Source: Tsukamurella conjunctivitidis (GTDB lineage Bacteria > Actinomycetota > Actinomycetes > Mycobacteriales > Mycobacteriaceae). From it: a stretch of DNA of 64,000 bases. The stretch spans positions 1 through 64,000 of the forward strand of contig NZ_VIGX01000019.1 of NCBI RefSeq assembly GCF_007858475.1. The letters run 5' to 3'. The notes beneath the pieces were generated by a model that made no database searches, was not told the DNA's origin, and worked only from the letters and a program-made list of their open reading frames with translations. Positions 33,139 to 48,013 of this stretch are shown here, piece by piece. How positions within the stretch are numbered: the stretch's first letter is position 1; the number at the start of each line of letters is the position of its first letter. Position numbers and translations under genes: made by a program.

Positions 33139-34950
<1,812 letters not shown>

Positions 34951-35078: not shown

Positions 35079-36539
35079 TTACCCACGAGTAACCGTCGCA
35101 TCGCCTATTTCGGTCACCAACGAACGTAGCGCGCCGAGGTACAGGGTGACACTCCGGCGTGCCGTGTCGAAGCCGGGGAACCGCGCCGCCACGTGCAGAC
35201 CGGACGGAGTGCGCAGCATCCACAGGTAGACGTCGTCGATCGAGTAGTCGCGCGAGCGCAGCGCCGCGGCGCCGCCCATGTCGTTGACGTCCGAGCCCGG
35301 AGCGGAGCGGGTGTCCATGAAGGAGACGACGAAGCGCGGCGGCGGCGCCTGGGAGCGGCCCGGCTCGTCCGCGAGCACCTCGCCGATGCGCAGGTAGGGC
35401 AGGGTGCTGCCGATCTTGGAGTGCTTCCATGCCGCCTGCGCCCGCTGCGCCAGCTCGCCGAAGGTGCGCGTGCCGGTGGTGTCGAGCCGGAACGGCGCGA
35501 TGCCCACGAACCAGCCCAAGGCCGCGATCCACTGCTCGGCGTCCCGCGTGTGGCGCGTGACGGCGCACCGGAAGACGGGGCCGAAGCCCAGGTCCGTGTT
35601 GATCTTCGCCATGCAGGCGAGGACGCCCGTCACGAGCGAGGCGCCCGATTCCGAGCAGACGCGGGTGAAGTTGTTGGACCGGTCGTCGTCGAGCAGGTGG
35701 AAGTTCAGCGCCCCCTGCGGCAGGCGCGGCACCCCGTCGGGGTCGCGGCTCAGCGCCGCCCGGGTCTCGTCGGCGAGCACCTTCGCGCTGAGCGGGAGCA
35801 GCGGCATCGGGAACGGATCGGGCTTGAAGCCGGTCTCGCTGAGGTACTCGTCCCACATCTGCGCCGCGGGGTGGCTCGCGCCGGCCCGGTCCGCCGACTG
35901 CCGGTCGGTGTCCGAGTAGTTGACGTAACTGCCGGTGGGCAGTAGGCGCGGCGCATCGGCGTGCACCGCCTCCCGGTAGAACTCCCGCAGCTCGTACGGG
36001 CTCAGGATCAGCGAGTAGCCGTCGAGCAGGGAGTGATCCGCGGCGAAGAACAGCGTGAAGGAGTCCTCCCGCGCCACCGTCGAGAACATGTAGGCGGGCC
36101 AGGTCAGCGGCGCGGTGGCCCGGTCGAACTCGCCGAGCAGCTGCTCGGCGAGGGGCCCCGTCGACCGGTAGGTGCCGATCACCTTGACCCGCAGGTCGAC
36201 GGTGGCGGTCTGCGCGCTCCGGCGCCGCGGCCGGCCGTCCTCGAGGAAGACGTGCGTCCGGAGCACCTCGTGGCGGTCGATCCACGCCCGGAGCGCGGTC
36301 CGCAGCCCCGGGATCGAGAGCGGCTCGTCGAACTCGACGCCGAGGCCCAGCCACGACTCGCGGCCGCCGTCGATGTGCCGGCGTCGCAGCACCGCCTGCG
36401 CGCCCCGCAGGTGGGCCTCGTGGACGTGCGACGTGGCGCGCGGGTCGTCGCGCCACCGCGCCGCCGGGCCCGTCGTGGGGATCCAGTTGCGCAGTTCACC
36501 CGGGCGCAGCGGGTACGCGTCCAGCTCGGTGAATTGCAT
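35079..36539 (-). CDS. PapA-like condensation-domain acyltransferase
   Basis: A 486-aa protein of the condensation/PapA superfamily, which moves acyl groups onto hydroxyls of sugars or diols. Active-site HxxxDG is HSLLDG in FFAADHSLLDGYSLI (about residue 165); other fold markers are LRAWIDRHEVLRTHVF near the N-terminus, NNFTRVCSESGASLVTGVLA and ALGWFVGIAPFRL. Length and layout match PapA1-PapA3-type acyltransferases and differ from the four ~415-aa relatives at 38-45 kb. It begins 25 bp after the sufE stop, so it is likely on the sseA-sufE transcript. No polyketide synthase is adjacent. Confidence 0.82.
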   Translation of the reverse strand: MQFTELDAYPLRPGELRNWIPTTGPAARWRDDPRATSHVHEAHLRGAQAVLRRRHIDGGRESWLGLGVEFDEPLSIPGLRTALRAWIDRHEVLRTHVFLEDGRPRRRSAQTATVDLRVKVIGTYRSTGPLAEQLLGEFDRATAPLTWPAYMFSTVAREDSFTLFFAADHSLLDGYSLILSPYELREFYREAVHADAPRLLPTGSYVNYSDTDRQSADRAGASHPAAQMWDEYLSETGFKPDPFPMPLLPLSAKVLADETRAALSRDPDGVPRLPQGALNFHLLDDDRSNNFTRVCSESGASLVTGVLACMAKINTDLGFGPVFRCAVTRHTRDAEQWIAALGWFVGIAPFRLDTTGTRTFGELAQRAQAAWKHSKIGSTLPYLRIGEVLADEPGRSQAPPPRFVVSFMDTRSAPGSDVNDMGGAAALRSRDYSIDDVYLWMLRTPSGLHVAARFPGFDTARRSVTLYLGALRSLVTEIGDATVTRG

Positions 36540-36564: not shown

Positions 36565-36984
36565 TTATCCGGCGAGCCGGCGCTTGATGCGGGCGAGCAT
36601 CGCCGACATGCCGCGCAGCCGCAGCGGGCTGACCACGGAGTCGAGGCCGAGGGCGTGGTGGAAGTCGTCCGGCACGGCGATGATCGCCGCGGCCGGCTGC
36701 CCGTCGAGGCCCTGCGCCAGGATCGACGCGAAGCCGCGAGTGGTCGGCGCCTCGGGCGGCGCGCTGAAGTACAGCCGCACCGACTCGGGATCCGAAGCGT
36801 CGACGTCGAGGAACAGCGGCGACTGGCACTCCGGAACCGGCTCCATCGCCGCCGCCGTCAGATGCTCGGGGAGCTCGGGCAGCTCGCGCGAGAACTCCAG
36901 CAGCAGTTCGAGGCGGTCCTGCTCACCGACGCCCGCGAAGTCGTCGACGATCTCCGCCAGCGGCGCGGGGAGGCCGGCCGTCAT
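36565..36984 (-). CDS. sufE: SufE-family sulfur acceptor
   Basis: A 139-aa SufE-like protein. The conserved cysteine is in [12 protein letters not shown] (about residue 55), where SufE accepts persulfide sulfur from a cysteine desulfurase; the C-terminal [15 protein letters not shown] is also typical. Its ATG overlaps the sulfurtransferase stop by 4 bp (ATGA). The sseA-sufE pair has the same order in M. tuberculosis (Rv3283-Rv3284). The partner here may be the adjacent rhodanese rather than SufS; that is inference. Confidence 0.92.
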
Positions 36985-37886
36985 GAGGTCGACGCCGCGC
37001 CCGGCACAGCGCCGGGGTCTTCGCCGCGCGCGATGGGCGCGCGGACGGTGTTGCCCCACTCCGTCCAGGATCCGTCGTAGTTGCGGACGTCCGAGAAACC
37101 CAGCAGGTGGGTGAGCACGAACCACGTGTGACTCGAGCGCTCGCCGATGCGGCAGTACGCCGTGACCGGCGCCTGCGGGTCCAGGCCGCCGTAGACCTCG
37201 AGGAGGTCGGCGTGCGGGAGGAACCGGCCGTCCTGCCGGGCCGCCTTCGCCCACGGGATCGACACCGCGGTGGGGATGTGGCCCCCGCGCAGGGCCCCCT
37301 CCTCCGGGTAGTCGGGCATGTGCGTGCGCTCGCCCGTGTACTCCTGCGGCGACCGTACGTCGACGAGCGCGCGGCGCCCGATGTCGGCGCGCACCTCATC
37401 GGCGAAGGCGCGGATCACCGAGTCGTCGCGTTCGACGACGGGGTAGTCGCTGCGCGGGTACTCCGGCTGCTCCAGCGAGACGTCGCGGGCGTCGCTGATC
37501 CACTTGTCGCGGCCGCCGTCGAGCAGGCGCACGTCCGGGTGCCCGAAGAGGGTGAACACCCACAGCGCGTAGGCGGCCCACCAGTTGGACTTGTCGCCGT
37601 AGATCACCACGGTGTCGTCGCGGCTGATGCCCTTGGCGCGCATCAGTTCCGCGAACTGCTCACCGGTGATGTAGTCGCGGGTCACCGGGTCGTTCAGGTG
37701 CAGGTGCCAGTCCACCTTCTGCGCCGTCGGGATGTGCCCGATGTCGTAGAGGAGCACGTCCTCGTCGGACTCGATCACCTTCAGGCCGGGGACACCGAGG
37801 TGCCCGCTCAGCCAGTCCGCGGTGACGAGGCGCTCGGGGTGTGCGTAGTCCTGCAGTTCCGCGCTCGGATCGGTCTCGATAGCCAC
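36981..37886 (-). CDS. sseA: Thiosulfate/3-mercaptopyruvate sulfurtransferase
   Basis: A 301-aa double rhodanese. The inactive N-terminal domain spans ~20-140 ([33 protein letters not shown]), the active domain ~160-290 with the catalytic cysteine in [18 protein letters not shown]. It transfers sulfane sulfur to cyanide or protein thiols. I chose the GTG at 37886 over the ATG 7 codons upstream because TAGGCT ends exactly 7 bp before it. Coupled to sufE. Upstream is the foreign-looking acyltransferase operon, 70 bp away. Confidence 0.92.
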
Positions 37887-37956
37887 GTCCGCCAGCCTAG
37901 CCTCCACACGCTCCGGGCGCGCCGCGGCGACCCCGTCGGGCGGTGTGCGCCCGGCC

Positions 37957-39231
37957 TCAGCGGACGGCGTACTCGTGGACCGCCTCCTCGACCACCCCGC
38001 GCAGGTCCGCGGCGGCGGCGAGGTTGGTCGCGGCGAACAGCGACATCTCCGACTCGGTGCCGGTCCACCCGACGTACAGGTACGGGGGCCGCGGCCCCGG
38101 CACCCGGCCGGGCAGCGACGACCACGCCAGGCGGAACCACGTGCGGTCCGCCGGGGTGCCGTCGGGGGCGCGGACCGGCGCGGGCAGGGCGCCGACGCCC
38201 GCGCAGGTCGTCACCGGGTGCGCCGGATCGGGCGGCGCGTCGATGAGCGCCGCCAGCGTGCGACGGGGGAGCAGCGTCAGGAGCGGGCCGAAGGCGTCGT
38301 AGCGCCCGGCGTCCGGGAGCGCGCCCAGGACCCCTTTGACGTCGGCGCGCAGAGCCACCACTCCCTCGGGGCCCGCCGTGGGATCGACGAGGAGTTCGGC
38401 GTCGACGATCGCGTTGCCGCGCAGGTCGCCCTCCTCGCGCCGGTTCACCGACAGGCCCAGCGCGGCCCGCCCGTCGGGCCGCACCCAGCCGAGGGCGGCG
38501 GCGATCCGTGCGGTGGCCCGGAACAGCAGGGTCGATTCGGTGCCGCCGGACTCGGCGGCGCGGGCCGCGAGGCCCTCGCGGTCGAGGTGCACGGCGGTCC
38601 AGCGATCCGGGCCGACGGGGTACGCGCGGGGCGGCCCGTCGTGCTCGAGGCGCCCGCGGGCGAGGCGGGCCGCCGTCGCCGCCGCGCGCGCCGCGGCCGG
38701 CAGTTCGCGCGCCGCCAGTGCGGCGTCGCGCCGTGCGGCACGAAGCGGGGGAGCGGCCTCCCGCGGGTAGGGCAGCTCGCGCGAGGCGCCCAGCGCCGCC
38801 TCGGCGACGGCGGTCGCGGTGCCCACGCCGTCGGCGAGGACGTGCGAGACCACCAGCGTGACAGCGGAACCGCCGTCGGTCAGGGGCAGCACCCCGAGAT
38901 GCCAGCCCGGCCCCGACCACGGGTCGATCGGCGCGGCGGCCCGTTCGTCGAGCCAGTCGTCGATCGCCGCCCGCGGCCGCGGAGAGGCCTCGACGGCGAT
39001 CCGCGGCGCGGCCGTCGTGGCCACCCAGCGGTCCCGTCCGAAGGGCAGCGGTGAGTGCGCGATCCGCCGCCCCAACAGCCCGCTCGTGAGGGCGGTGCGG
39101 AACCGCTCGAGGCCCGCGGCGTCGACCCCGTCGTCGTAGACCCAGACCACCTGGATGAGCGAATTGCGGCCGGTCGCACGGGTACCGGAGGCCGCGCCCT
39201 GGTCGACGAAGGCGAGCAGGTCGGCCGTCAT
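37957..39231 (-). CDS. Condensation-fold acyltransferase (last gene of glycolipid-type operon)
   Basis: A 424-aa condensation-superfamily protein. The HxxxDG motif is SHVLADGVG near residue 130; [18 protein letters not shown] and [12 protein letters not shown] occupy the positions of the second-half strands. It is more divergent than its three operon relatives and contains WES/DGAT-like features (short N-terminal region, Ala/Arg-rich central helix [18 protein letters not shown]). Its ATG overlaps the previous gene's stop (ATGA). Acyl donor and acceptor are unknown; the operon context suggests acylation of a glycoside. Confidence 0.75.
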
Positions 39232-40475
39232 GCGGCCGCTCCGGCGCCGACGAGGCCGGATTCGATCCGGTCCCGGATCCGGCGGGCGGCCGCGGGCGCC
39301 AGGGTGCCCGGGGCGTGCCGCAGCTCGATCGAGAGCCGTCCGTCGAAGGTCAAGGCGTGGTGATGCAGCCCGACCAGCGGGGCGAGGGCCTCGGGCGGGG
39401 CGTTCCGGACCAGGACGCGGACCCGGTCTATGTCGACCTCCGAGCTGGTGTGGAAGTCCACGGCGGTGACCCCGTCCGGCGTCGACGGCGCAGGGATCGC
39501 CCCGATGTTGCTCAGCCGCACCGGGACCCCGCCGCTCACCGTCACCGGCGCGGAGCCGGCGAGCGCGGCGGCGACCGTGCCGTCCGCGAGGTCGGTACGG
39601 AGCCGGTCGAGGACCGCGCGGCCGATCTCCTCGGGAGCGGAGTCGCCCCGCACCGCGACGGGCACGGTCGACGAGCCGGCGAAGTTCGTGACCGCCGCGG
39701 CGGGGACGGCGGGCTCCGCGCGGGCCCGCAGGTCGACCGGGCTGAAGACGGCCAGCGGTACCGCCTCGTCGGTGGGGCGGTCGAGTTCGGCCCGCTCCGC
39801 GGCGACGATGATCCCGGCGAGCAGGCCGTGGACGCTCAGACCCGCCTCCTTCGCCCGGCGCCGCAGGGCATCGGTCGTGGCGGCGTCGAGCCGGATCCGG
39901 TCGAAGGCGAAGTCGCCGGCGTCGACGTCGGCGGGCGTCGGCACCGACGCGGTCGGGACGACCTCCACCACGGACGGCGCCGGCGAGGAGGCCGCCGCGA
40001 GGCGATCCGCCAGGTCCGTCGGCGCGGCCGGGAGCCCGGCGGGGGCCGCGGCCTCGGCGCCCGAGTACAGCTCCCACAGACGCAGATTGAGGTACAGCGC
40101 ATGTGCGCCGTCGGCGACCGCGTGACTCACACCGAGGGTCACCCGGTGCAGCTCGCCGTCCGAGACGAGCTGCACGGCGGAAACGGCGTTCTCGACGTCG
40201 ACGCCGAGCCGGACGTCGCCCGGGACGAAGGGGCGCAGCTCCACCTGGATCGCGGCGGCGTCCTGCTCGGGCGGGGAGTCCGGGGCGACGAGGTCGAATC
40301 CGAAGGCGTGCGCCTCGATCCGGCCCGCGAGGACCGGGTACTCGCGGCGCAGCGAGGCGAAGGCCCCGGCCAGGCGGTCCGCCACCACCGGGCCGCGGAC
40401 CACGAAGCTGCCGCTGGAGGTGGTTCCCGTGAGCACGTAGGGGATCTCGAGCGGGGTCAGGGCGCGTCGGGGCAT
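39228..40475 (-). CDS. PapA5-like acyltransferase paralog
   Basis: A 415-aa member of the condensation superfamily, paralogous to the genes at 42571 and 43891. HxxxDG is SHAVADGAH (about residue 130); shared blocks are SPVDLRARAEPAVP, VTNFAGSSTV, RLSNIGAIPAP and the C-terminal ALTFDGRLSIELRH. Start chosen at MPRRALTPLEIPYV, right after the glycosyltransferase stop (TGAGATG), with GGAGGT as ribosome site; the extra codons upstream belong to a shadow frame. Predicted cytoplasmic, using acyl-CoA donors; substrate unknown. Confidence 0.82.
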   Translation of the reverse strand: MPRRALTPLEIPYVLTGTTSSGSFVVRGPVVADRLAGAFASLRREYPVLAGRIEAHAFGFDLVAPDSPPEQDAAAIQVELRPFVPGDVRLGVDVENAVSAVQLVSDGELHRVTLGVSHAVADGAHALYLNLRLWELYSGAEAAAPAGLPAAPTDLADRLAAASSPAPSVVEVVPTASVPTPADVDAGDFAFDRIRLDAATTDALRRRAKEAGLSVHGLLAGIIVAAERAELDRPTDEAVPLAVFSPVDLRARAEPAVPAAAVTNFAGSSTVPVAVRGDSAPEEIGRAVLDRLRTDLADGTVAAALAGSAPVTVSGGVPVRLSNIGAIPAPSTPDGVTAVDFHTSSEVDIDRVRVLVRNAPPEALAPLVGLHHHALTFDGRLSIELRHAPGTLAPAAARRIRDRIESGLVGAGAAA

Positions 40476-40476
40476 C

Positions 40477-41859
40477 TCACACCTCCAGTCCGGCGAGCGA
40501 GACCACCGAGGCGGTGTCGAAGTCGACGGTGTCGGGCGCCGTGACCGGCGCGATCGTCCGCACATCGACCCCGTCGTCCTCGGCGATCGACTCGATGATC
40601 GTCGCGGCGCGCCGAGCGGGGATGTCGCCCAGGTCGATCAGGGACGAGATCCGCTGGGCGCGGCGGCGGGTGGCCGGGGCGAGCAGCAGGTCGAAGGCGG
40701 CGTGCAGCCGTTCGGCGGTGACGTTGCGCATCGGCAGGCACGCGCCGACGCCGAGGTCGGTGACGCGCGCGCCCCAGAAGGGCTGGTCCGCGAGCACCGG
40801 GCAGATCAGCGTGGGCAGGCCCGCCCGCAGCGATGCGGCGGTGGTGCCGGCCCCGCCGTGGTGGACGGCGGCGGCGCAGTGCGGCAGCACCTCCGCGTGC
40901 ACCACCTCGTCGACGACGCGGATGTGCTCGCCCAGGTCGGCGCCGACCAGATCGCTCCACCCGGCGACGATGAGGCCGCGGCGGCCGCGCTCGGCGCAGA
41001 CCCGGGCGAAGGTGCGCGCCATGCCGTCGGGGTCCGCGATGCGCATGCTGCCGAAGCCCCAGTAGATGGGGGCGTCGCCCTCCGTGAGCCAGGCCATGAG
41101 GTCGGCGTCCGTGCGCTTCTGCTCACCCTGGCGCAGCCAGGCGTCGGCCGGGACCTCGAGGAAGCCGAGCATCGGCCGGGTCCGGCTGAACTCGGGGACC
41201 AGGTCGGGGGTGAGCGCGGGGTCGTAGAGCTGCAGGTCGACGATCTCGTTGGCGTCGCGGTTCTTCGCGCGGCGCGACCGGTAGGGGGCCTCGCCGACCG
41301 ACATCCGATGGAAGTTCACGGCGGCCCGGACGTGCGTCCAGGTGAACGAGTCGCCGAGGGCCCAGGTCGCGCGCTTGACCATCCGGGGCGAGCGGGAGAG
41401 CACGTCGCTGGTCAGGCCCGCCGGCGTGTACTGCGTCATCGGGTAGACGCTGTTCGTGGTGCCGGGGAAGAACCGGTAGCTGATGATGCTCGCGCCGCTG
41501 CGCCGGCTGATCGGGAGCGCGAAATCGACGGCGTCCGAATGGGTCAGCACCACATCGGCGTCACGGCAGACGATCTCCGTCTCGCGCGAGATGGTGGCGA
41601 TGTTGCGGATCAGCCAGCGCCCGTAAGCCCGCATCCGTTCGACGGGCCGGTGGATCACGTCGCGGTAGTCGTCGTCGTAGTCCGGCACGAAGTCGTTGAG
41701 CCGGTGCGCGTCGAGCCCGGCCGAACGGATGAGGCGCACCAGGGGGTCGCCCATCGCGGCGATGGTCACGTCGTGCCCGCGGGCGCGCAGCGCCAACCCG
41801 ATCGCGATCGTCGGCTGGACGTCGCCGCGGCTCCCCATGGCGAGGATGCAGACCTTCAT
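40477..41859 (-). CDS. Glycosyltransferase, GT1 family (GtfA/UGT-like)
   Basis: A 460-aa GT-B glycosyltransferase. N-terminal acceptor domain begins MKVCILAMGSRGDVQPTIAI, the signature of sterol/glycopeptidolipid/PGL glycosyltransferases; the donor site HCAAAVHHGGAGTTAASLRAG is in the C-terminal half (about residues 325-345), followed by PVLADQPFWGARVTDLGVG. It transfers a sugar from an NDP-sugar to a lipid or small-molecule hydroxyl. Start at the ATG with AAAGGACGAACTGAC upstream. As the only glycosyltransferase in an operon of four acyltransferases, it probably makes the glycoside they acylate. Confidence 0.9.
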   Translation of the reverse strand: MKVCILAMGSRGDVQPTIAIGLALRARGHDVTIAAMGDPLVRLIRSAGLDAHRLNDFVPDYDDDYRDVIHRPVERMRAYGRWLIRNIATISRETEIVCRDADVVLTHSDAVDFALPISRRSGASIISYRFFPGTTNSVYPMTQYTPAGLTSDVLSRSPRMVKRATWALGDSFTWTHVRAAVNFHRMSVGEAPYRSRRAKNRDANEIVDLQLYDPALTPDLVPEFSRTRPMLGFLEVPADAWLRQGEQKRTDADLMAWLTEGDAPIYWGFGSMRIADPDGMARTFARVCAERGRRGLIVAGWSDLVGADLGEHIRVVDEVVHAEVLPHCAAAVHHGGAGTTAASLRAGLPTLICPVLADQPFWGARVTDLGVGACLPMRNVTAERLHAAFDLLLAPATRRRAQRISSLIDLGDIPARRAATIIESIAEDDGVDVRTIAPVTAPDTVDFDTASVVSLAGLEV

Positions 41860-41860
41860 G

Positions 41861-42574
41861 TCAGTTCGTCCTTTCGACGGTCGGGTGGAGCTCGGTTCGA
41901 GGGGGCACGGGGGCCGGGACGGCACCCTCCGGGGCGGCGGCGAGCGCGTTCCGGACGGGGCGCAGGAGCAGCAGCGTGAGCGGCAGCACGGGCAGGGCGA
42001 CGAGCAGTGGGATCACCTGACAGGCGACCACGGCGTAATCGATCGGCAGGCCGAGCGCCGCGGTGATCGAGGCGGTGGTACTGAGCACGACCGCCACGAG
42101 CCACAGCGGGTCGACGGCGCGGAGCGCCCGGACGCAGCGGCGTTCGGTCCGGACGCGGCGGTTCCATCGCTGGGCCCGGGCCGTCTCGCCGCGCACCGTG
42201 AGCCGCATCATGAGGGTCGCGACGGCCGGCCGCCGCAGGACCAGCCCGGCGGCGATCGCGACGGCCATGAGCGCGCCGATGGCCGTCTCCACCAACAGGA
42301 TCACCCGCGGGCTGCCCGAGATCGCGGCGGCGGTGATCGAGGCGGCCAGCAGGGTGAGCGTGAACAGCTCCAGCGGGTCGGTCGCGCGGCGCACCAGGGT
42401 CCGGAGGAGGATCCGCAGGGCGACGAGGGTGGTGCCGACGACCAGCGCGACGAGTTGGCCGGTGCCGACCAGGTAGCGCAGCGAGAAGTACACGCCCAGT
42501 TGGAGCGCGACGTCGACGAGCAGCGCCACCGGCGGGGCGGGTGGCGATTCGGTGTCGGCGAGGGGGACCGTCAT
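41861..42574 (-). CDS. VC0807-type integral membrane protein
   Basis: A 237-aa membrane protein with about six hydrophobic segments. The layout (LLVDVALQLGVYFSLRYLVG, then TTLVALRILLRTLVRR, then ISGSPRVILLVETAIGALMA) matches the VC0807/septation-A-like family, whose function is not established. It ends with a Pro-rich cytoplasmic tail. Its start overlaps the upstream acyltransferase stop by 4 bp and the glycosyltransferase starts 1 bp after its stop, so it is a fixed part of the operon. It may anchor the enzymes or help move product across the membrane; both are inference. Confidence 0.78.
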   Translation of the reverse strand: MTVPLADTESPPAPPVALLVDVALQLGVYFSLRYLVGTGQLVALVVGTTLVALRILLRTLVRRATDPLELFTLTLLAASITAAAISGSPRVILLVETAIGALMAVAIAAGLVLRRPAVATLMMRLTVRGETARAQRWNRRVRTERRCVRALRAVDPLWLVAVVLSTTASITAALGLPIDYAVVACQVIPLLVALPVLPLTLLLLRPVRNALAAAPEGAVPAPVPPRTELHPTVERTN

Positions 42575-43857
42575 GCGGCGGTTCCGATCGCCACCAGCCG
42601 GTGCGCGCCGTCCTCGATCCGCTCGAGGAGCCGGCGCCGCACCGCCCCGTCGAGCGTGCCGGGGAGCACCCGCAGCTCGACCGACAACCGGTCGCCGAAG
42701 GTGGAGACGAGGTAGGAGGAGCCGATCGGCGCGGCCGGAACGCCGTCCCCGTCGTGGCCCTTCGCGTACTCGCGGATCCCGGACGCGCTGCGGACGATCT
42801 GCGCGTGGAAGTCGAGGACGTCGAGGCCCGCCGGGGTGACCGGTGCGGGTACCTCGCCCAGGTTGCTGATGAGGACGGGCGGCCCGTGGCGCCGGGTCCG
42901 CGGATCCGGCATCGGGCTCACCGCGGTCCGCAGCACCGTGCCGTCGCGGACGTCCGCGCGGATCCGGTCGGCGACGGTGCGCGCGATCTCCTCGGTCGGG
43001 GCGTCGCCGACCGCCACGTAGGAGAAGCCGCAGAGCGCGGTCACCGAGCGCAGCGGGATCGGCGGGTCGATCCGGCCGCGGAAGTCGACCGGGGTCAGCA
43101 GGGCGACCGCCGCTCCCTCCGCGCACTCGCCGAGCTCGGCCCGCGCGATGAGACCGCTCACCAGCGCGTGCGGTGAGACGCCGTGGGCACGCGCCGCGGC
43201 GGCCAGCGCCGCGGTCTCGGACGCACCGAACCGGACGCGCAGCGCGTCGTCCACGTCCGGGCCCGGCTCCGCGGGGAACTCCGTCGGTACCGCGCCGTGC
43301 CAGACGGTACCCGCCAGCCGTTCCTCGTAATCGAGCTCCTCCGGCAGATGCCCGCGCGCCGCCATCACCAGGTGCGGCTCCGCCGGGAAGTCGTTGGCGC
43401 GCCGGATGATCGGCGTCGCACCGCTGGCGAGCGCGGTGTACAGCTCGAACAGCCGGGCCGCGATCGCGACGATGCCGGACCCGTCCGTCGCCGCGTGGCT
43501 GGCCCACAGGGTCAGGCGGTGGCGCTCGCCGATCCCGGTGAGCGACAGGGCCGCCAGTTGCTCGGAGCCGACGAACCACGGCGGCGTCTGCTCGTAGCCG
43601 GTCCACGGCGCGGTGCTGTCGCGGAAGCCGATCGCGGCGGCGACGGCGGCGTCGCCCGGGGCGAAGTGCGGGCGGCCCTTGACGTGCACGATGCGCGCCG
43701 CGAGCACGGGGTACTCCTCGAGCAGGGCGCTGAAGGCGGACCGCAGTGCGGTGCCGTCGACGACGCCCCGCAACTCGAACGACGTGCCGATCACCTCGCG
43801 CGAGGTGGGGCGCACGAAGGAGGCCTCGGAGAAGGTGAGTGCGCGGTGGTTCTGCAT
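42571..43857 (-). CDS. PapA5-like acyltransferase paralog
   Basis: A 428-aa condensation-superfamily acyltransferase, second gene of the operon. Catalytic HxxxDG is SHAATDGSG (about residue 126). Shared blocks with its paralogs: ALLEEYPVLAARI near the N-terminus, TPVDFRGRIDPPIP, VTALCGFSYV, VLISNLGEVPAP, STFGDRLSVELRVLPG. It lacks the first His of the HHxxxDG form, as do all five relatives here, but keeps the catalytic one. A 33-bp gap separates it from the first gene. Acyl donor unknown. Confidence 0.82.
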   Translation of the reverse strand: MQNHRALTFSEASFVRPTSREVIGTSFELRGVVDGTALRSAFSALLEEYPVLAARIVHVKGRPHFAPGDAAVAAAIGFRDSTAPWTGYEQTPPWFVGSEQLAALSLTGIGERHRLTLWASHAATDGSGIVAIAARLFELYTALASGATPIIRRANDFPAEPHLVMAARGHLPEELDYEERLAGTVWHGAVPTEFPAEPGPDVDDALRVRFGASETAALAAAARAHGVSPHALVSGLIARAELGECAEGAAVALLTPVDFRGRIDPPIPLRSVTALCGFSYVAVGDAPTEEIARTVADRIRADVRDGTVLRTAVSPMPDPRTRRHGPPVLISNLGEVPAPVTPAGLDVLDFHAQIVRSASGIREYAKGHDGDGVPAAPIGSSYLVSTFGDRLSVELRVLPGTLDGAVRRRLLERIEDGAHRLVAIGTAA

Positions 43858-43890
43858 GAGCGGCTCCTGTTCGGACGGCGGGGCGGCGGA

Positions 43891-45132
43891 TCAGGCCGCG
43901 GGGGCGCGGCGGGCGGCGGCGTGGACGAGGGCGTCGATGCGGTCGGCGACGGCGGTGCGTGCCGCAGCGGAGGCGGTGCCGCCGAGGGTGATCGCCTCGA
44001 TCCCGAGGCGGCCGCGGAAGGTCGAGACCTGGTGGATCGTGGCCGACGGGGCGGGGCGCCGCGGACCGTCGGGCACGTGGAGCGCCGAGGAGTCCATCGA
44101 CAGGACGGGGCGCAGGTCCTCGGCGACCAGCCCGTCGGGCAGCTCCACGTCGAGCGGGCCCAGGTTGCTGAGCACCACCGGCGGCTCGGGCACTTCGCCC
44201 GCTCCGGCGGCGCGCGCCAGCGCCGTGAGGGCGCGCCCGCCCCGGACGTCCCGGCGCACCGTGCGGGCGAGGTCCTCGCCGACGACGGCGGGGTCGGAGG
44301 CGGCGGTCAGTTCGACGGCGGCGTACGACGCGCCGACGAAGTTGGTCACCTCGGTGGGATCGAGCATCGGGCGCACCCGGCGACGGAGATCGACGAGCGT
44401 CATCGCGCCGATCCGCACGGGCGCCGCCGGATCCTCGTCGAGGAAGCCGGCCCGCTCGGCGGTGAGCAGGATCCCGGAGAGCAGCGCGTTCAGGCCGATG
44501 CCCTCGGCGGCCGCGAGCAGCCCCGCGGTGGTGTCGGGGGAGAAGCGCAGCGAGACGGTCTCGGGGAGCACCGCGTCGCCGGCGCGCGGGCCGAGGACGG
44601 GCGCGCTGCCGTACCACCGCGCACCGTCGAGGCGGGCGCGGCCGGTGCTGACCTTCGGCACGTCGAGGTCGGCGAGGATCCGCTGCGCCGACCGGGGGAA
44701 GGGCTGCGGCGTCCCCGGGTCCGTGGCGCCGGTGCGCACCAGCGCTGTGTAGTGCGACCAGAGCCGCGTGAGGAGGGCGTACAGGTGGGTGCCGTCGGCG
44801 AGGGCGTGGTTGACGGCGAGCGCGACGCGGTGCCGGTCGCCGAACGAGGTGACGTGCAGACGGGCGAGCGCCGCGGTGGGGTCGACCAGGGGGTCGCCGG
44901 GACCGTCGGTGCGGGTGGCACCGCCGACGGGCGGGACGAAGGCGTGGCCGTCGGCGGTGGGTGCGACCGCGGCGTCGAGCGCGGGGTGCTCGGCGCGCAG
45001 CGCGGCGAAGGCGTCGGACAATGCGTCGGAGTCCAGCGGGCCGCGCACGGTCAGCTCGAAGGCGCACGTGGTGGGATGCGGGCCCACGAACCCGATCTCG
45101 GACGAGGCGAGGGGACGAAGCGTCGTGGTCAT
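43891..45132 (-). CDS. PapA5-like acyltransferase paralog (first gene of operon)
   Basis: A 413-aa condensation-superfamily acyltransferase. HxxxDG is NHALADGTH (about residue 119); shared blocks are ALRAEHPALDAAV, MTLVDLRRRVRPMLD, VTNFVGASYAA, VVLSNLGPLDV and STFRGRLGIEAI. The ATG is 6 bp after TAGCGT (45144-45139), a leaderless promoter; an inverted repeat sits at the -35 position. This promoter likely serves all six genes down to 37957, since four of the five later junctions are overlaps or 1-bp gaps. Confidence 0.83.
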   Translation of the reverse strand: MTTTLRPLASSEIGFVGPHPTTCAFELTVRGPLDSDALSDAFAALRAEHPALDAAVAPTADGHAFVPPVGGATRTDGPGDPLVDPTAALARLHVTSFGDRHRVALAVNHALADGTHLYALLTRLWSHYTALVRTGATDPGTPQPFPRSAQRILADLDVPKVSTGRARLDGARWYGSAPVLGPRAGDAVLPETVSLRFSPDTTAGLLAAAEGIGLNALLSGILLTAERAGFLDEDPAAPVRIGAMTLVDLRRRVRPMLDPTEVTNFVGASYAAVELTAASDPAVVGEDLARTVRRDVRGGRALTALARAAGAGEVPEPPVVLSNLGPLDVELPDGLVAEDLRPVLSMDSSALHVPDGPRRPAPSATIHQVSTFRGRLGIEAITLGGTASAAARTAVADRIDALVHAAARRAPAA

Positions 45133-45397: not shown

Positions 45398-46045
45398 TCA
45401 GGCTCGGTCGGACCACAGCTCGACGGGCGAGACGCCCAGCTCGGCGAGCAGCTGCCGGGTCAACGGCAGCGAGATGCCGATCACCGAGCTCGGATCGCCC
45501 TCGAGGCCCTCGACGAACCAGCCGCCGAGCCCGTCGAGGGTGAAGCCCCCGGCCACCTCGAGCGGCTCGCCCGTCGCGACGTAGGCGTCGATCTCCGTGT
45601 CCGACGGTGCGCCGAACCGCAGCGTCGTGCCGCGCGTGCCGCTGACGGTGCTGCCGGGGCCGGCCACGGCACCGTCGTCGAGCCGGATGGCGCAGTGTCC
45701 CGTGAGGAGGCGGCCCGTGCGCCCGCGCATCGCGCGCCAGCGCGTGGCGGCCACCTCGGGGGTGTGCGGCTTGCCGACGAGCTCGCCGTCGATGGAGAGC
45801 ATCGAATCGCAGCCGATCACCACGGCACGGCCGGGCAGCGGCCCCTCGGCGATGATCCGGTCCACCACGTCCTGCGCCTTGGCCCGCGCGAGGGCCGCGA
45901 CGGCGTCCTCGTGCGCGACGTCCGGGCCCAGGTCGGCGAGGATCGCGTCCTCGTCGACCTGGGACACCGAGACCAACGGGGACGTCCCGGCGGCGCGCAG
46001 CACCGACAGCCGCGCCGGCGAGGCCGACGCGAGCACGAGGCGCAC
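45398..46045 (-). CDS. maf: Maf-family nucleoside triphosphate pyrophosphatase
   Basis: A 215-aa Maf protein: hydrolyses dTTP/UTP or modified nucleoside triphosphates to the monophosphate and PPi. Motifs: LVLASASPARLSVLRAAG at the N-terminus (SxSPxR), EDA in VDEDAILAD, and VIGCDSMLSIDGELVGKPHTPE. GTG start 15 bp after the accE stop, same strand, as in Rv3280-3282 of M. tuberculosis. A divergent or convergent neighbour at its 3' end is missing: sseA, expected next, is displaced 7.5 kb by the acyltransferase operon. Confidence 0.95.
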   Translation of the reverse strand: MRLVLASASPARLSVLRAAGTSPLVSVSQVDEDAILADLGPDVAHEDAVAALARAKAQDVVDRIIAEGPLPGRAVVIGCDSMLSIDGELVGKPHTPEVAATRWRAMRGRTGRLLTGHCAIRLDDGAVAGPGSTVSGTRGTTLRFGAPSDTEIDAYVATGEPLEVAGGFTLDGLGGWFVEGLEGDPSSVIGISLPLTRQLLAELGVSPVELWSDRA

Positions 46046-46060
46046 GGGAGCGGCGATGAG

Positions 46061-46333
46061 CTACGACCCCTTGGTCCAGAAGACCGGCGTCTGGCTGGTG
46101 AAGGCGTTGGGGCCGTTGAAGTACTGCGGGCGCATCCGATCGCGGACATCGCCCCACAACGACTTCGGGCCCTCGGGGCCCGTCTGCGGCGCCGAGCCGG
46201 TGGCCGCGGCGAGCACCGCGACCACGGCGGCGACATCCGCGTCCGAGGGGTTGCCCTTCTCGAACCGGATGGCGGCGCGCAGCTTCTCGACGTCGGCGGC
46301 GCTGGCCTCCACGGGCTTGTCGTTCGCGCTCAC
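46061..46333 (-). CDS. accE: Acyl-CoA carboxylase epsilon subunit
   Basis: A 90-aa AccE/AccE5-type protein, specific to actinobacterial carboxylases, which helps AccA3 and AccD5 assemble. The N-terminal half has [20 protein letters not shown], the VLxGxPxxEEVAA-like motif of the family; the C-terminal [11 protein letters not shown] is also typical. GTG start overlapping the accD5 stop (GTGA), so production is coupled 1:1. Too short for confident domain calling alone, but the position is diagnostic. Confidence 0.88.
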
Positions 46334-47985
46334 AGCGGGATGTTCCCGTGCTTCTTGGGCAGGGTGGCGACCACCTTGCGCTCGAGCATGTTCAGCGCCG
46401 TGACGATCTGGCCGCGGGTGTGCGAGGGCGGGATCACGGCGTCGACGTAGCCGCGCTCGGCCGCCACGTACGGGTTGACCAGGGTGTCCTCGTACTCCTG
46501 CTGCAGCGTCAGGCGCAGGGCCTCGACGTCCTCGCCCTTCTCGGCGGCCTCGGCCAGCTCCTTGCGGTAGACGAAGCCGACGGCGCCGCTCGCGCCCATC
46601 ACGGCGAACTGGGCGGTGGGCCACGCGAGGTTGATGTCGGCGCCCATGTCCTTGCTGCCCATGACGCAGTAAGCGCCGCCGTAGGCCTTGCGGGTCACGA
46701 CGGTGATCTTCGGGACCGTGGCCTCGCCGTAGGCGTAGAGCAGCTTCGCGCCGCGGCGGATGATGCCGTCGTACTCCTGGCCGGTGCCGGGCAGGAAGCC
46801 GGGCACGTCGACCAGGGTCACGATCGGGATGTTGAAGGCGTCGCAGAAGCGCACGAAGCGGGCGGCCTTCTCGGAGGCGTCGATGTCGAGGCAGCCGGCC
46901 AGCTGGGTGGGCTGGTTCGCGACGATGCCGACGCTGCGGCCGTCGACGCGGCCGAAGCCCACGATGATGTTCATCGCGCGCTGCGGCTGGATCTCGAGGA
47001 ACTCGTCGTCGTCGAGCAGGCGGCGGATGACCTCGTGCATGTCGTACGGCTGGTTCGGCGAGTCCGGGATCAGCGTGTCCAGCTCGCGGTCCTCGTCGTT
47101 CACCGAGTCCTCGATCGAGCCGGTGAGGGGGTCCGTCGGCACGAAGCGCGGGGCCTCGGCGCGGTTGTTCGAGGGCAGGTAGGTGAGCAGCTCGCGGACG
47201 TAGTCCAGCGCGTCCTGCTCGCCCGACGCGACGTAGTGCGCGGTGCCCGACTTGGTCATGTGGGTCTGGGCGCCGCCCAGCTCCTCCTTCGTGACCTCCT
47301 CGCCGGTCACGGACTTGATGACGTCCGGGCCGGTGATGAACATCTGGCTCTCGTGATCGACCATCACCACGAAGTCGGTCAGCGCGGGGGAGTAGACGTG
47401 GCCGCCGGCGGCCGCGCCCATCACCACGGAGATCTGCGGGATGACGCCCGAGGCCTGCGTGTTGCGGAAGAAGATCTGCGAGTACAGGGCGAGCGAGACG
47501 ACGCCCTCCTGGATGCGCGCGCCGGCACCGTCGATGATGCCGACCAGCGGGCGGCCCGTCTTGGTGGCCAGGTCCATGACCTTGACGATCTTCTCGCCGT
47601 AGACCTCGCCCAGCGAGCCGCCGAAGACGGTCGAGTCCTGGCTGAAGACGCACACCTCGCGGCCGTCGATGGTGCCGTAGCCGGCCACCACGCCGTCGCC
47701 GACGGGGCGCCGCGCCGCCATGCCAAAGTTGGTCGAGCGGTGCTGGGCCAGCTTGTCCAGCTCCACGAACGAACCCTCGTCGAGCAGCGCGAGCACGCGC
47801 TCGCGGGCCGTCAGGCGGCCCTTCTCGTGCACCTTCTCGATCGCCGCCGGGCCCATCGGGGCCATCGCCTCGGCGTCCTTCTTGCGGAAGGCCGCCAGCT
47901 TGCCGGCGGTGGTGTGGATGCTGGGCTCGGCGTCAGCGTTGTTGCCGGCGCCGGAGGCGCCGTCGGTGGTGGAGGCACTCGTCAT
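46330..47985 (-). CDS. accD5: Acyl-CoA (propionyl-CoA) carboxylase beta subunit
   Basis: A 551-aa carboxyltransferase. Signatures: [40 protein letters not shown], oxyanion-hole Gly-Ala [14 protein letters not shown] and [17 protein letters not shown], and in the second half [16 protein letters not shown] and [19 protein letters not shown]. Likely makes methylmalonyl-CoA (and malonyl-CoA) with AccA3. Start chosen at the ATG 7 bp after TAGAGT on the minus strand (leaderless); six more codons are open upstream. It is divergent from birA across a symmetric promoter. Confidence 0.96.
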
Positions 47986-47988
47986 AGA

Positions 47989-48013
47989 ACCGACTCTAAC
48001 CAATAGAGTCGGT
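47989..48013. promoter_or_regulatory. Symmetric back-to-back promoter, accD5/birA
   Basis: Perfect 10-bp arms ACCGACTCTA and TAGAGTCGGT separated by 5 bp. Each arm contains a -10 element TAGAGT pointing outward: 7 bp before the accD5 ATG on the minus strand, and at 48004-48009 on the plus strand for birA. The two promoters occupy one dyad, so a single regulator could control carboxylase and its biotin ligase together. The BirA here has no DNA-binding domain. Confidence 0.6.

What the first reader, a model, noticed from the sequence alone, without database searches (positions are those of the whole stretch)
37957..45132. Six-gene operon of four condensation-fold acyltransferases, a GT1 glycosyltransferase and a VC0807 membrane protein
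Seen: one strand, one strong promoter, junctions of -4, +1, +1, -4 and +33 bp; four proteins with HxxxDG motifs; a GtfA-like glycosyltransferase with HHGGAGTT; a ~6-TM protein. Known: PapA-type enzymes acylate sugar or diol hydroxyls, and GT1 enzymes of this type glycosylate lipids. Inference: the operon makes a glycoside carrying up to four acyl chains. Tsukamurella and relatives make such surfactant lipids, but I know of no described locus with this composition, and there is no PKS, FadD or MmpL.
Basis: partly seen in the sequence, partly recalled or inferred. Interest (0 to 1): 0.82.

Follow-up and report, generated by a model that had tools for sequence, protein, structure and literature searches.

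The report
Tsukamurella operon for a polyacylated glycolipid
A compact set of six genes in Tsukamurella bacteria very probably builds a sugar lipid carrying several fatty chains, and it sits at a chromosomal spot where related bacteria keep different sets of sugar-lipid genes.

Summary
The six-gene operon (37957-45132, minus strand) is real: junctions are as reported, 11 of 16 Tsukamurella genomes have it at the same place, and all six genes are under purifying selection. Three acyltransferases are PapA5-type (PF16911); the fourth has no Pfam match but folds as a condensation-type enzyme. The "strong promoter" was not confirmed.

New: (1) the maf-sseA site is variable: empty in 2 of 16 genomes; another four-acyltransferase cassette plus a decayed g2 in 2 of 16. 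Outside the genus 46 of 110 measured intervals exceed 4 kb; 12 of 17 examined held acyltransferases, 8 with GT1. (2) The three PapA5-type enzymes have one-to-one counterparts beside VC0807 in a Segniliparus-like genome. (3) T. tyrosinosolvens, reported to make tri/tetrasaccharide lipids with four acyl chains, carries the operon.

Best reading: a polyacylated glycoside, most likely an oligosaccharide ester on trehalose. The product is inferred, not shown. New variant of a known kind.

The parts
43891..45132 (-). g1, PapA5-type acyltransferase, 413 aa, HALADG
   Evidence: PF16911 148.5 bits (cutoff 30); groups with S1 of the Segniliparus-like locus (99/94)
42571..43857 (-). g2, PapA5-type acyltransferase, 428 aa, HAATDG
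   Evidence: PF16911 174.2 bits; PapA5 structure 1q9j E 1e-18; groups with S4 (97/95)
41861..42574 (-). g3, VC0807-family membrane protein, 237 aa
   Evidence: NF041646 96 bits (cutoff 65); helical model; overlaps g2 by 4 bp
40477..41859 (-). g4, GT1 glycosyltransferase (GtfA/sterol-GT type), 460 aa
   Evidence: PF06722, PF00201; 3h4i/1iir/5gl5 matches; strongest purifying selection (dN/dS 0.05-0.16 in genus)
39228..40475 (-). g5, PapA5-type acyltransferase, 415 aa, HAVADG
   Evidence: PF16911 195.5 bits; groups with S2 (100/97)
37957..39231 (-). g6, condensation-fold acyltransferase without a Pfam family, 424 aa, HVLADG
36981..37907 (-). sseA-like sulfurtransferase, downstream flank of the site, 49 bp after g6
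   Evidence: annotated sulfurtransferase in T. tyrosinosolvens
35079..36539 (-). flanking PapA2-like condensation acyltransferase, 486 aa (fifth acyltransferase)
   Evidence: PF00668 63.9 bits; PapA2 structure 6aef E 2e-26; matched in 16 of 16 genus genomes
33139..34950 (-). acyl-CoA carboxylase alpha subunit (accA3-like), flank
   Evidence: annotated in T. tyrosinosolvens
45398..46045 (-). Maf family protein, upstream flank of the site
46330..48003 (-). acyl-CoA carboxylase beta subunit (accD5-like), upstream flank

Best explanation
The operon is a biosynthetic unit for a polyacylated glycoside. The GT1 enzyme (g4) transfers one sugar, probably glucose from UDP-glucose, in an inverting (beta) reaction; three PapA5-type enzymes and g6 each ester-link an acyl chain from acyl-CoA to a particular hydroxyl of the sugar backbone; g3 is a membrane partner that may place or move the lipid. 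The most likely acceptor is trehalose, perhaps already acylated by the neighbouring PapA2-like enzyme, so the product would be an oligosaccharide ester such as the tetra-acylated tri/tetrasaccharide lipids reported for T. tyrosinosolvens. Shown: families, fold, motifs, conservation, site. Inferred: sugar donor, acceptor, number of chains, role of g3.
For: Families and fold. Set kept together: 11 of 16 Tsukamurella genomes, W. maris (six genes), G. effusa (five, no g6). A Segniliparus-like genome has four PapA5-type genes (three by Pfam; the second by my own profile) plus a VC0807-like gene in a row, with the GT 6.4 kb away on the other strand and an MmpL between; g1, g5 and g2 each group with one of them (99/94, 100/97, 97/95), so the enzymes seem to have kept separate jobs. 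Site: the same maf-sseA interval held GT1 + g6-type + PapA2-type enzymes in 6 of 6 Rhodococcus/Rhodococcoides loci examined. Pap spacing in R. fascians A44A (1457, 1434, 2889, from tblastn starts) is close to that of the papA cluster of Rhodococcus sp. I2R (1478, 1434, 2911; PMC8396431 table), which makes succinoyl di/trisaccharide lipids; the related lipids of two other Rhodococcus strains have a third beta-glucose (figure legend). Species: T. tyrosinosolvens carries the operon and its reported trisaccharide lipids are acylated twice on each of two sugars: four esters plus one extra glycosyl transfer on trehalose.
Against: No enzyme assay or lipid data tie any gene to any product. The operon's GT clade (12 rows, 100), with the W. 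maris and Segniliparus-like GTs, lies outside the clade that holds the 27 island GTs (97, quick method), so same site does not mean same acceptor. W. maris (G129) has both a Rhodococcus-type island at maf-sseA and this operon elsewhere, so the two are not interchangeable. Two Gordonia loci and one Flexivirga locus have like GT/acyltransferase sets with no maf or sseA in the stretch, so the site is not required. T. pseudospumae JCM 13375 carries the operon, yet the lipids reported for other strains of the species are trehalose diesters (PMC4365757; PMC9321207), which need no extra sugar. The lipid-producing strain DSM 44370 itself was not examined. I do not know the anomeric form of the third sugar in the T. 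tyrosinosolvens lipid; if alpha, an inverting GT1 using UDP-glucose would not fit. No transporter of a known family and no acyl-CoA ligase is in the operon.
Confidence: 0.55

Rival explanations
1. Acylated lipid glycoside: the GT1 glucosylates a lipid aglycone (carotenoid, hopanoid/sterol-like alcohol, hydroxy-fatty acid or polyketide), and the acyltransferases esterify the sugar.
For: The GT matches GtfA/GtfB (aglycone GTs) and sterol 3-beta-glucosyltransferases in the PDB. GT1 enzymes of this type often act on lipids (general knowledge). PapA5-type enzymes are known for acylating lipid diols (recalled).
Against: I saw no aglycone gene among the annotated genes of the 24-kb T. tyrosinosolvens stretch. 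Four acyltransferases on one hexose would use all free hydroxyls. Rhodococcus islands at this site fit saccharide esters.
Confidence: 0.27
2. The operon makes the known trehalose diesters of Tsukamurella, and the GT is accessory.
For: T. pseudospumae JCM 13375 carries the operon, and strains of that species make 2,3-diacyl trehaloses.
Against: The PapA2-like neighbour, matched in 16 of 16 genomes, is the better candidate for that step. The GT is the most constrained gene, and three PapA5-type enzymes that group one-to-one with genes of a Segniliparus-like genome exceed what a diester needs.
Confidence: 0.1
3. The acyltransferases do not acylate a glycolipid; they are condensation-fold relatives with other acceptors (for example wax, diol or peptide), and the GT inactivates a drug.
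For: GT has a partial match to rifamycin-inactivating Rgt (125 bits, cutoff 800); NCBIfam PapA5 cutoffs are not reached.
Against: Far below the Rgt cutoff; co-conservation of the GT with four acyltransferases and g3 in two genera (Tsukamurella and Williamsia) is not expected of a resistance gene.
Confidence: 0.05

Closest known systems
Rhodococcus sp. I2R / R. fascians papA cluster linked to succinoyl trehalose and trisaccharide lipids (PMC8396431)
   Same: Same chromosomal interval (maf | cassette | sseA-sufE-PapA-accA3), GT1 plus several HxxxDG acyltransferases, g6-type enzymes
   Different: There the main acyltransferases are PapA2/A3-type, here PapA5-type (PF16911); the GT belongs to another clade; no VC0807 match was found there; the paper lists the papA genes only, and the match of the two loci is my inference from spacing
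PapA5 (phthiocerol dimycocerosyl transferase, PDB 1q9j)
   Same: PF16911, HxxxDG; g2 matches 1q9j by sequence, g6 by fold
   Different: No PKS/FadD in the operon; scores (157-172 bits) far below NCBIfam's PapA5 cutoff of 396
Tsukamurella tyrosinosolvens di/tri/tetrasaccharide lipids (Vollbrecht 1998, seen only via PMC4365757)
   Same: Species carries the operon; one extra glycosylation plus four esters fits one GT plus four acyltransferases
   Different: No gene has been linked to these lipids in what I could read; strain DSM 44370 not examined
Fungal mannosylerythritol lipid cluster (one GT, several acyltransferases, a transporter; recalled)
   Same: Logic of one GT plus several acyltransferases making a polyacylated glycoside
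   Different: Other enzymes and organisms; not tested here

Membership tests
PapA5-type acyltransferases (g1, g2, g5) | PF16911 above gathering score | tested here: met
   148.5, 174.2, 195.5 bits against 30
PapA5-type acyltransferases (g1, g2, g5) | Catalytic HxxxDG | tested here: met
   in the window and in 36 of 36 copies from 12 other loci; lost in the decayed g2 copies of G006 and G009
PapA5 proper (NCBIfam NF006787) | curated cutoff 396 bits | tested here: not met
   157.2, 170.9, 171.7 bits
Condensation/CoA-dependent acyltransferase fold (g6) | two-lobed fold with HxxxDG | tested here: met
Condensation domain PF00668 (g6) | Pfam match | tested here: not met
   0 families up to E 1
GT1 / GtfA-sterol GT type (g4) | PF00201/PF06722 above cutoff and HHGGAGT donor motif | tested here: met
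   23.6 vs 19.5 and 67.6 vs 31.7 bits; motif in 12 of 12 other loci
GT1 / GtfA-sterol GT type (g4) | inverting transfer from UDP-sugar | not testable with these tools
   needs an assay
Rifamycin-inactivating Rgt (g4) | NCBIfam cutoff 800 bits | tested here: not met
   125.4 bits
VC0807 family (g3) | NF041646 cutoff 65 bits | tested here: met
   96 bits
Rhodococcus-type saccharide-ester island | location between maf and sseA | tested here: met
Rhodococcus-type saccharide-ester island | PapA2/A3-type acyltransferases within the cassette | tested here: not met
   PapA5-type instead; the PapA2-like gene lies outside, after sufE
Rhodococcus-type saccharide-ester island | GT within the island GT clade | tested here: not met
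   separate clade
PDIM/PGL-type locus | PKS, FadD and MmpL with PapA5 | tested here: not met
   none among the operon's six genes
Locus of T. tyrosinosolvens oligosaccharide lipids | present in the producing species | tested here: met
   NCTC13231, 88.5% nucleotide identity over the queried 5905 bp (g1 to g5), g6 next to it
Locus of T. tyrosinosolvens oligosaccharide lipids | gene-product link | not testable with these tools
   needs mutants and lipid analysis

The most novel reading that the evidence does not exclude
The maf-sseA interval is a family-wide exchange site for surface-glycolipid cassettes in mycolic-acid bacteria, comparable to a serotype locus: lineages swap whole sets of acyltransferases, glycosyltransferases and transporters between the same two housekeeping genes, and so change their outer lipid. 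The Tsukamurella cassette is an old, separately evolved member that was lost and replaced in two lineages (relic g2) and also sits in other genomic places (Gordonia effusa, Williamsia maris).
Probability: 0.5. Interest if true: 0.7.

Novelty: new variant of a known kind. Interest (0 to 1): 0.55.

Why it matters
Genes for Tsukamurella's trehalose and oligosaccharide lipids are unassigned in everything I could read. This operon is a concrete candidate, with natural carriers and non-carriers in one genus, so gene-to-lipid tests are direct. The variable site offers a simple address (between maf and sseA) at which to look for glycolipid pathways in genomes of the family, and three acyltransferases kept apart since an early split offer a system for learning how PapA-type enzymes choose hydroxyls and chains.
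Full report

Host and distribution. The nearest named relatives are Tsukamurella. The GT ortholog (88% identity or more) is in 11 of 16 genomes of the genus, the window's own included; a twelfth genome, G009, had only a 36% relative. G011 has g6 and the end of g5 at a contig break. In a search of 401 family genomes, 16 matched at E 1e-75 or better: these 11, G. effusa (84%), W. maris (60%), a Segniliparus-like genome (53%; its name is recalled from the contig length of 3,157,527 bases and comes from no call) and two at 38-40%. G. effusa has five of the genes and W. maris six, in neither case with maf, sseA or the other flanks in the stretch I hold. The G. effusa GT lies inside the Tsukamurella clade (supports 85-89 in a quick tree), which suggests transfer. 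T. tyrosinosolvens NCTC13231 has all six, at the same site, annotated as hypothetical protein, acyltransferase, VC0807 family protein, glycosyltransferase, acyltransferase, hypothetical protein; the record is labelled 'plasmid 9' but carries purE and acyl-CoA carboxylase genes. G015 matches T. tyrosinosolvens (100% over 92% of 9 kb) and G003 T. paurometabola DSM 20162 (100% over 9 kb).

Selection. Between the window and ten other Tsukamurella loci, dN/dS was 0.05-0.16 for g4, 0.13-0.24 for g6, 0.13-0.27 for g2, 0.16-0.33 for g5, 0.15-0.33 for g3 and 0.17-0.55 for g1; no stops; HxxxDG kept in every copy. All six are maintained, the GT most strictly, g1 least.

The site. The order accD5, (epsilon subunit), maf, operon, sseA, sufE, PapA2-like, accA3 is all on one strand. 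The PapA2-like gene (35079-36539) is matched in 16 of 16 genus genomes (in G010 the match is in two pieces). In G012 and G010 the accD5-sseA interval is 985 and 1217 bp: empty. In G006 and G009 it holds another cassette: PapA2-type, PapA2-type, GDSL hydrolase, MFS transporter, g6-type, PapA2-type enzymes (the g6-type one has no Pfam match), preceded by a shortened g2-like gene that has lost HxxxDG. That remnant groups inside Tsukamurella g2 (95/92), so these two lineages, or their common ancestor, most likely had this operon and lost it.

Beyond the genus. Interval lengths were measured in 124 genomes; 58 exceed 4 kb, 12 of 14 in Tsukamurella and 46 of 110 outside it. I fetched 17 of these 46 (20 stretches), chosen to span genera and not at random. 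By my own profiles, built in part from such loci, 8 hold GT1 with PapA2-type and g6-type acyltransferases, 4 hold acyltransferases without GT (3 of those with an MFS), 1 has one giant frame with a condensation-type match, and 4 show none of these families inside the interval; one of the last holds sugar-nucleotide enzymes and a glycosyltransferase of another family. Six of six Rhodococcus/Rhodococcoides loci examined, among them R. fascians A44A, have GT1, g6-type and PapA2-type genes between maf and sseA; two Gordonia loci and a Flexivirga locus have like genes without maf or sseA in the stretch.

One-to-one enzymes. In the Segniliparus-like genome four PapA5-type genes (three by Pfam; the second by my profile) are followed by a VC0807-like gene (E 4.4e-30 with the g3 profile; below the DUF3159 cutoff in Pfam); the GT is 6.4 kb away on the other strand, with an MmpL and an alpha/beta-hydrolase between. 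In a tree of 29 rows, S1 groups with g1 (99/94), S2 with g5 (100/97), S4 with g2 (97/95); S3 is placed by g5 with weak support (91/47), and the four Segniliparus-like branches are long. The g2-g3 neighbourhood is kept. The three enzymes therefore probably separated before these lineages split and each has been kept, which argues for three distinct acylation steps.

What it makes. PMC4365757 (passages and section 8 read) reports trehalose diesters for T. pulmonis, T. spumae, T. pseudospumae and T. tyrosinosolvens, and for T. tyrosinosolvens DSM 44370 also tri- and tetrasaccharide esters, the trisaccharide with two sugars carrying two C8-C10 chains each and the third sugar linked at C2 of trehalose. 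PMC9321207 (passages) gives T. pseudospumae lipids with stearate at C2 and a short acid at C3 of trehalose. One GT and four acyltransferases fit the T. tyrosinosolvens trisaccharide by count; this is an inference from numbers and species, not a link. PMC8396431 (passages and section 16) describes succinoyl di- and trisaccharide lipids in Rhodococcus sp. I2R, a third beta-glucose in the lipids of two other strains, and four clustered papA genes whose spacing is close to that of the R. fascians island at this site. The original papers by Vollbrecht, Konishi, Esch and Inaba were not read.

Limits. The operon's GT is not nested in the clade of island GTs; W. maris has both systems; T. pseudospumae has the operon but in the papers seen is reported to make diesters only. 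So 'polyacylated glycoside' is likely (about 0.85, my judgement), 'trehalose-based oligosaccharide ester' is the best single guess (0.55), and the role of g3 is open.

Literature. Ten searches of the open-access library (three of them found nothing, and one search listed 20 of 47) listed no paper on this operon or on a maf-sseA glycolipid site; I went by titles, abstract starts and passages of the three papers named, so a mention deep in another paper is possible.

Noticed in passing
L084:4678-5610 and L085:5696-6553: Decayed copies of g2 beside a different cassette in two Tsukamurella genomes; HxxxDG is lost and the middle is missing.
   Followed up: yes
L128:1-10323 (own genome, contig C110): A PapA5-type gene follows PKS domains (KR, KS, AT, ACP, condensation) and a DrrA-like ABC transporter gene: a second, PKS-linked PapA5 locus in the same genome.
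   Followed up: partly
L104:9067-19480 and L127:1-3836: Segniliparus-like locus with GT, MmpL, alpha/beta-hydrolase, four PapA5-type genes and a VC0807-like gene.
   Followed up: yes
L120:1883-19900: An open frame of at least 6,000 codons with a condensation-type match fills much of the maf-sseA site in one genome of genus g22 and runs to the end of the stretch; possibly an NRPS.
   Followed up: no
L124:2140-9090: In one genome of genus g30 the site holds an epimerase, a UDP-glucose/GDP-mannose dehydrogenase and a glycosyltransferase of another family instead of acyltransferases.
   Followed up: partly
L141 (NZ_LR134451.1): T. tyrosinosolvens record labelled plasmid 9 carries purE and acyl-CoA carboxylase genes; it looks like a chromosomal piece.
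   Followed up: no
window 37908-37956: Only 49 bp separate g6 from sseA and the genes to accA3 run the same way, so the transcript may go on past the operon.
   Followed up: no
G000:C21:50237-50854 (L130): A second, distant VC0807-like protein in the same genome, with no acyltransferase or GT nearby that my profiles recognised.
   Followed up: partly
L018, L024 (Gordonia), L035 (Flexivirga): GT1 plus g6-type and PapA2-type acyltransferase sets that are not flanked by maf or sseA in the stretch held, so such sets also live at other places.
   Followed up: partly
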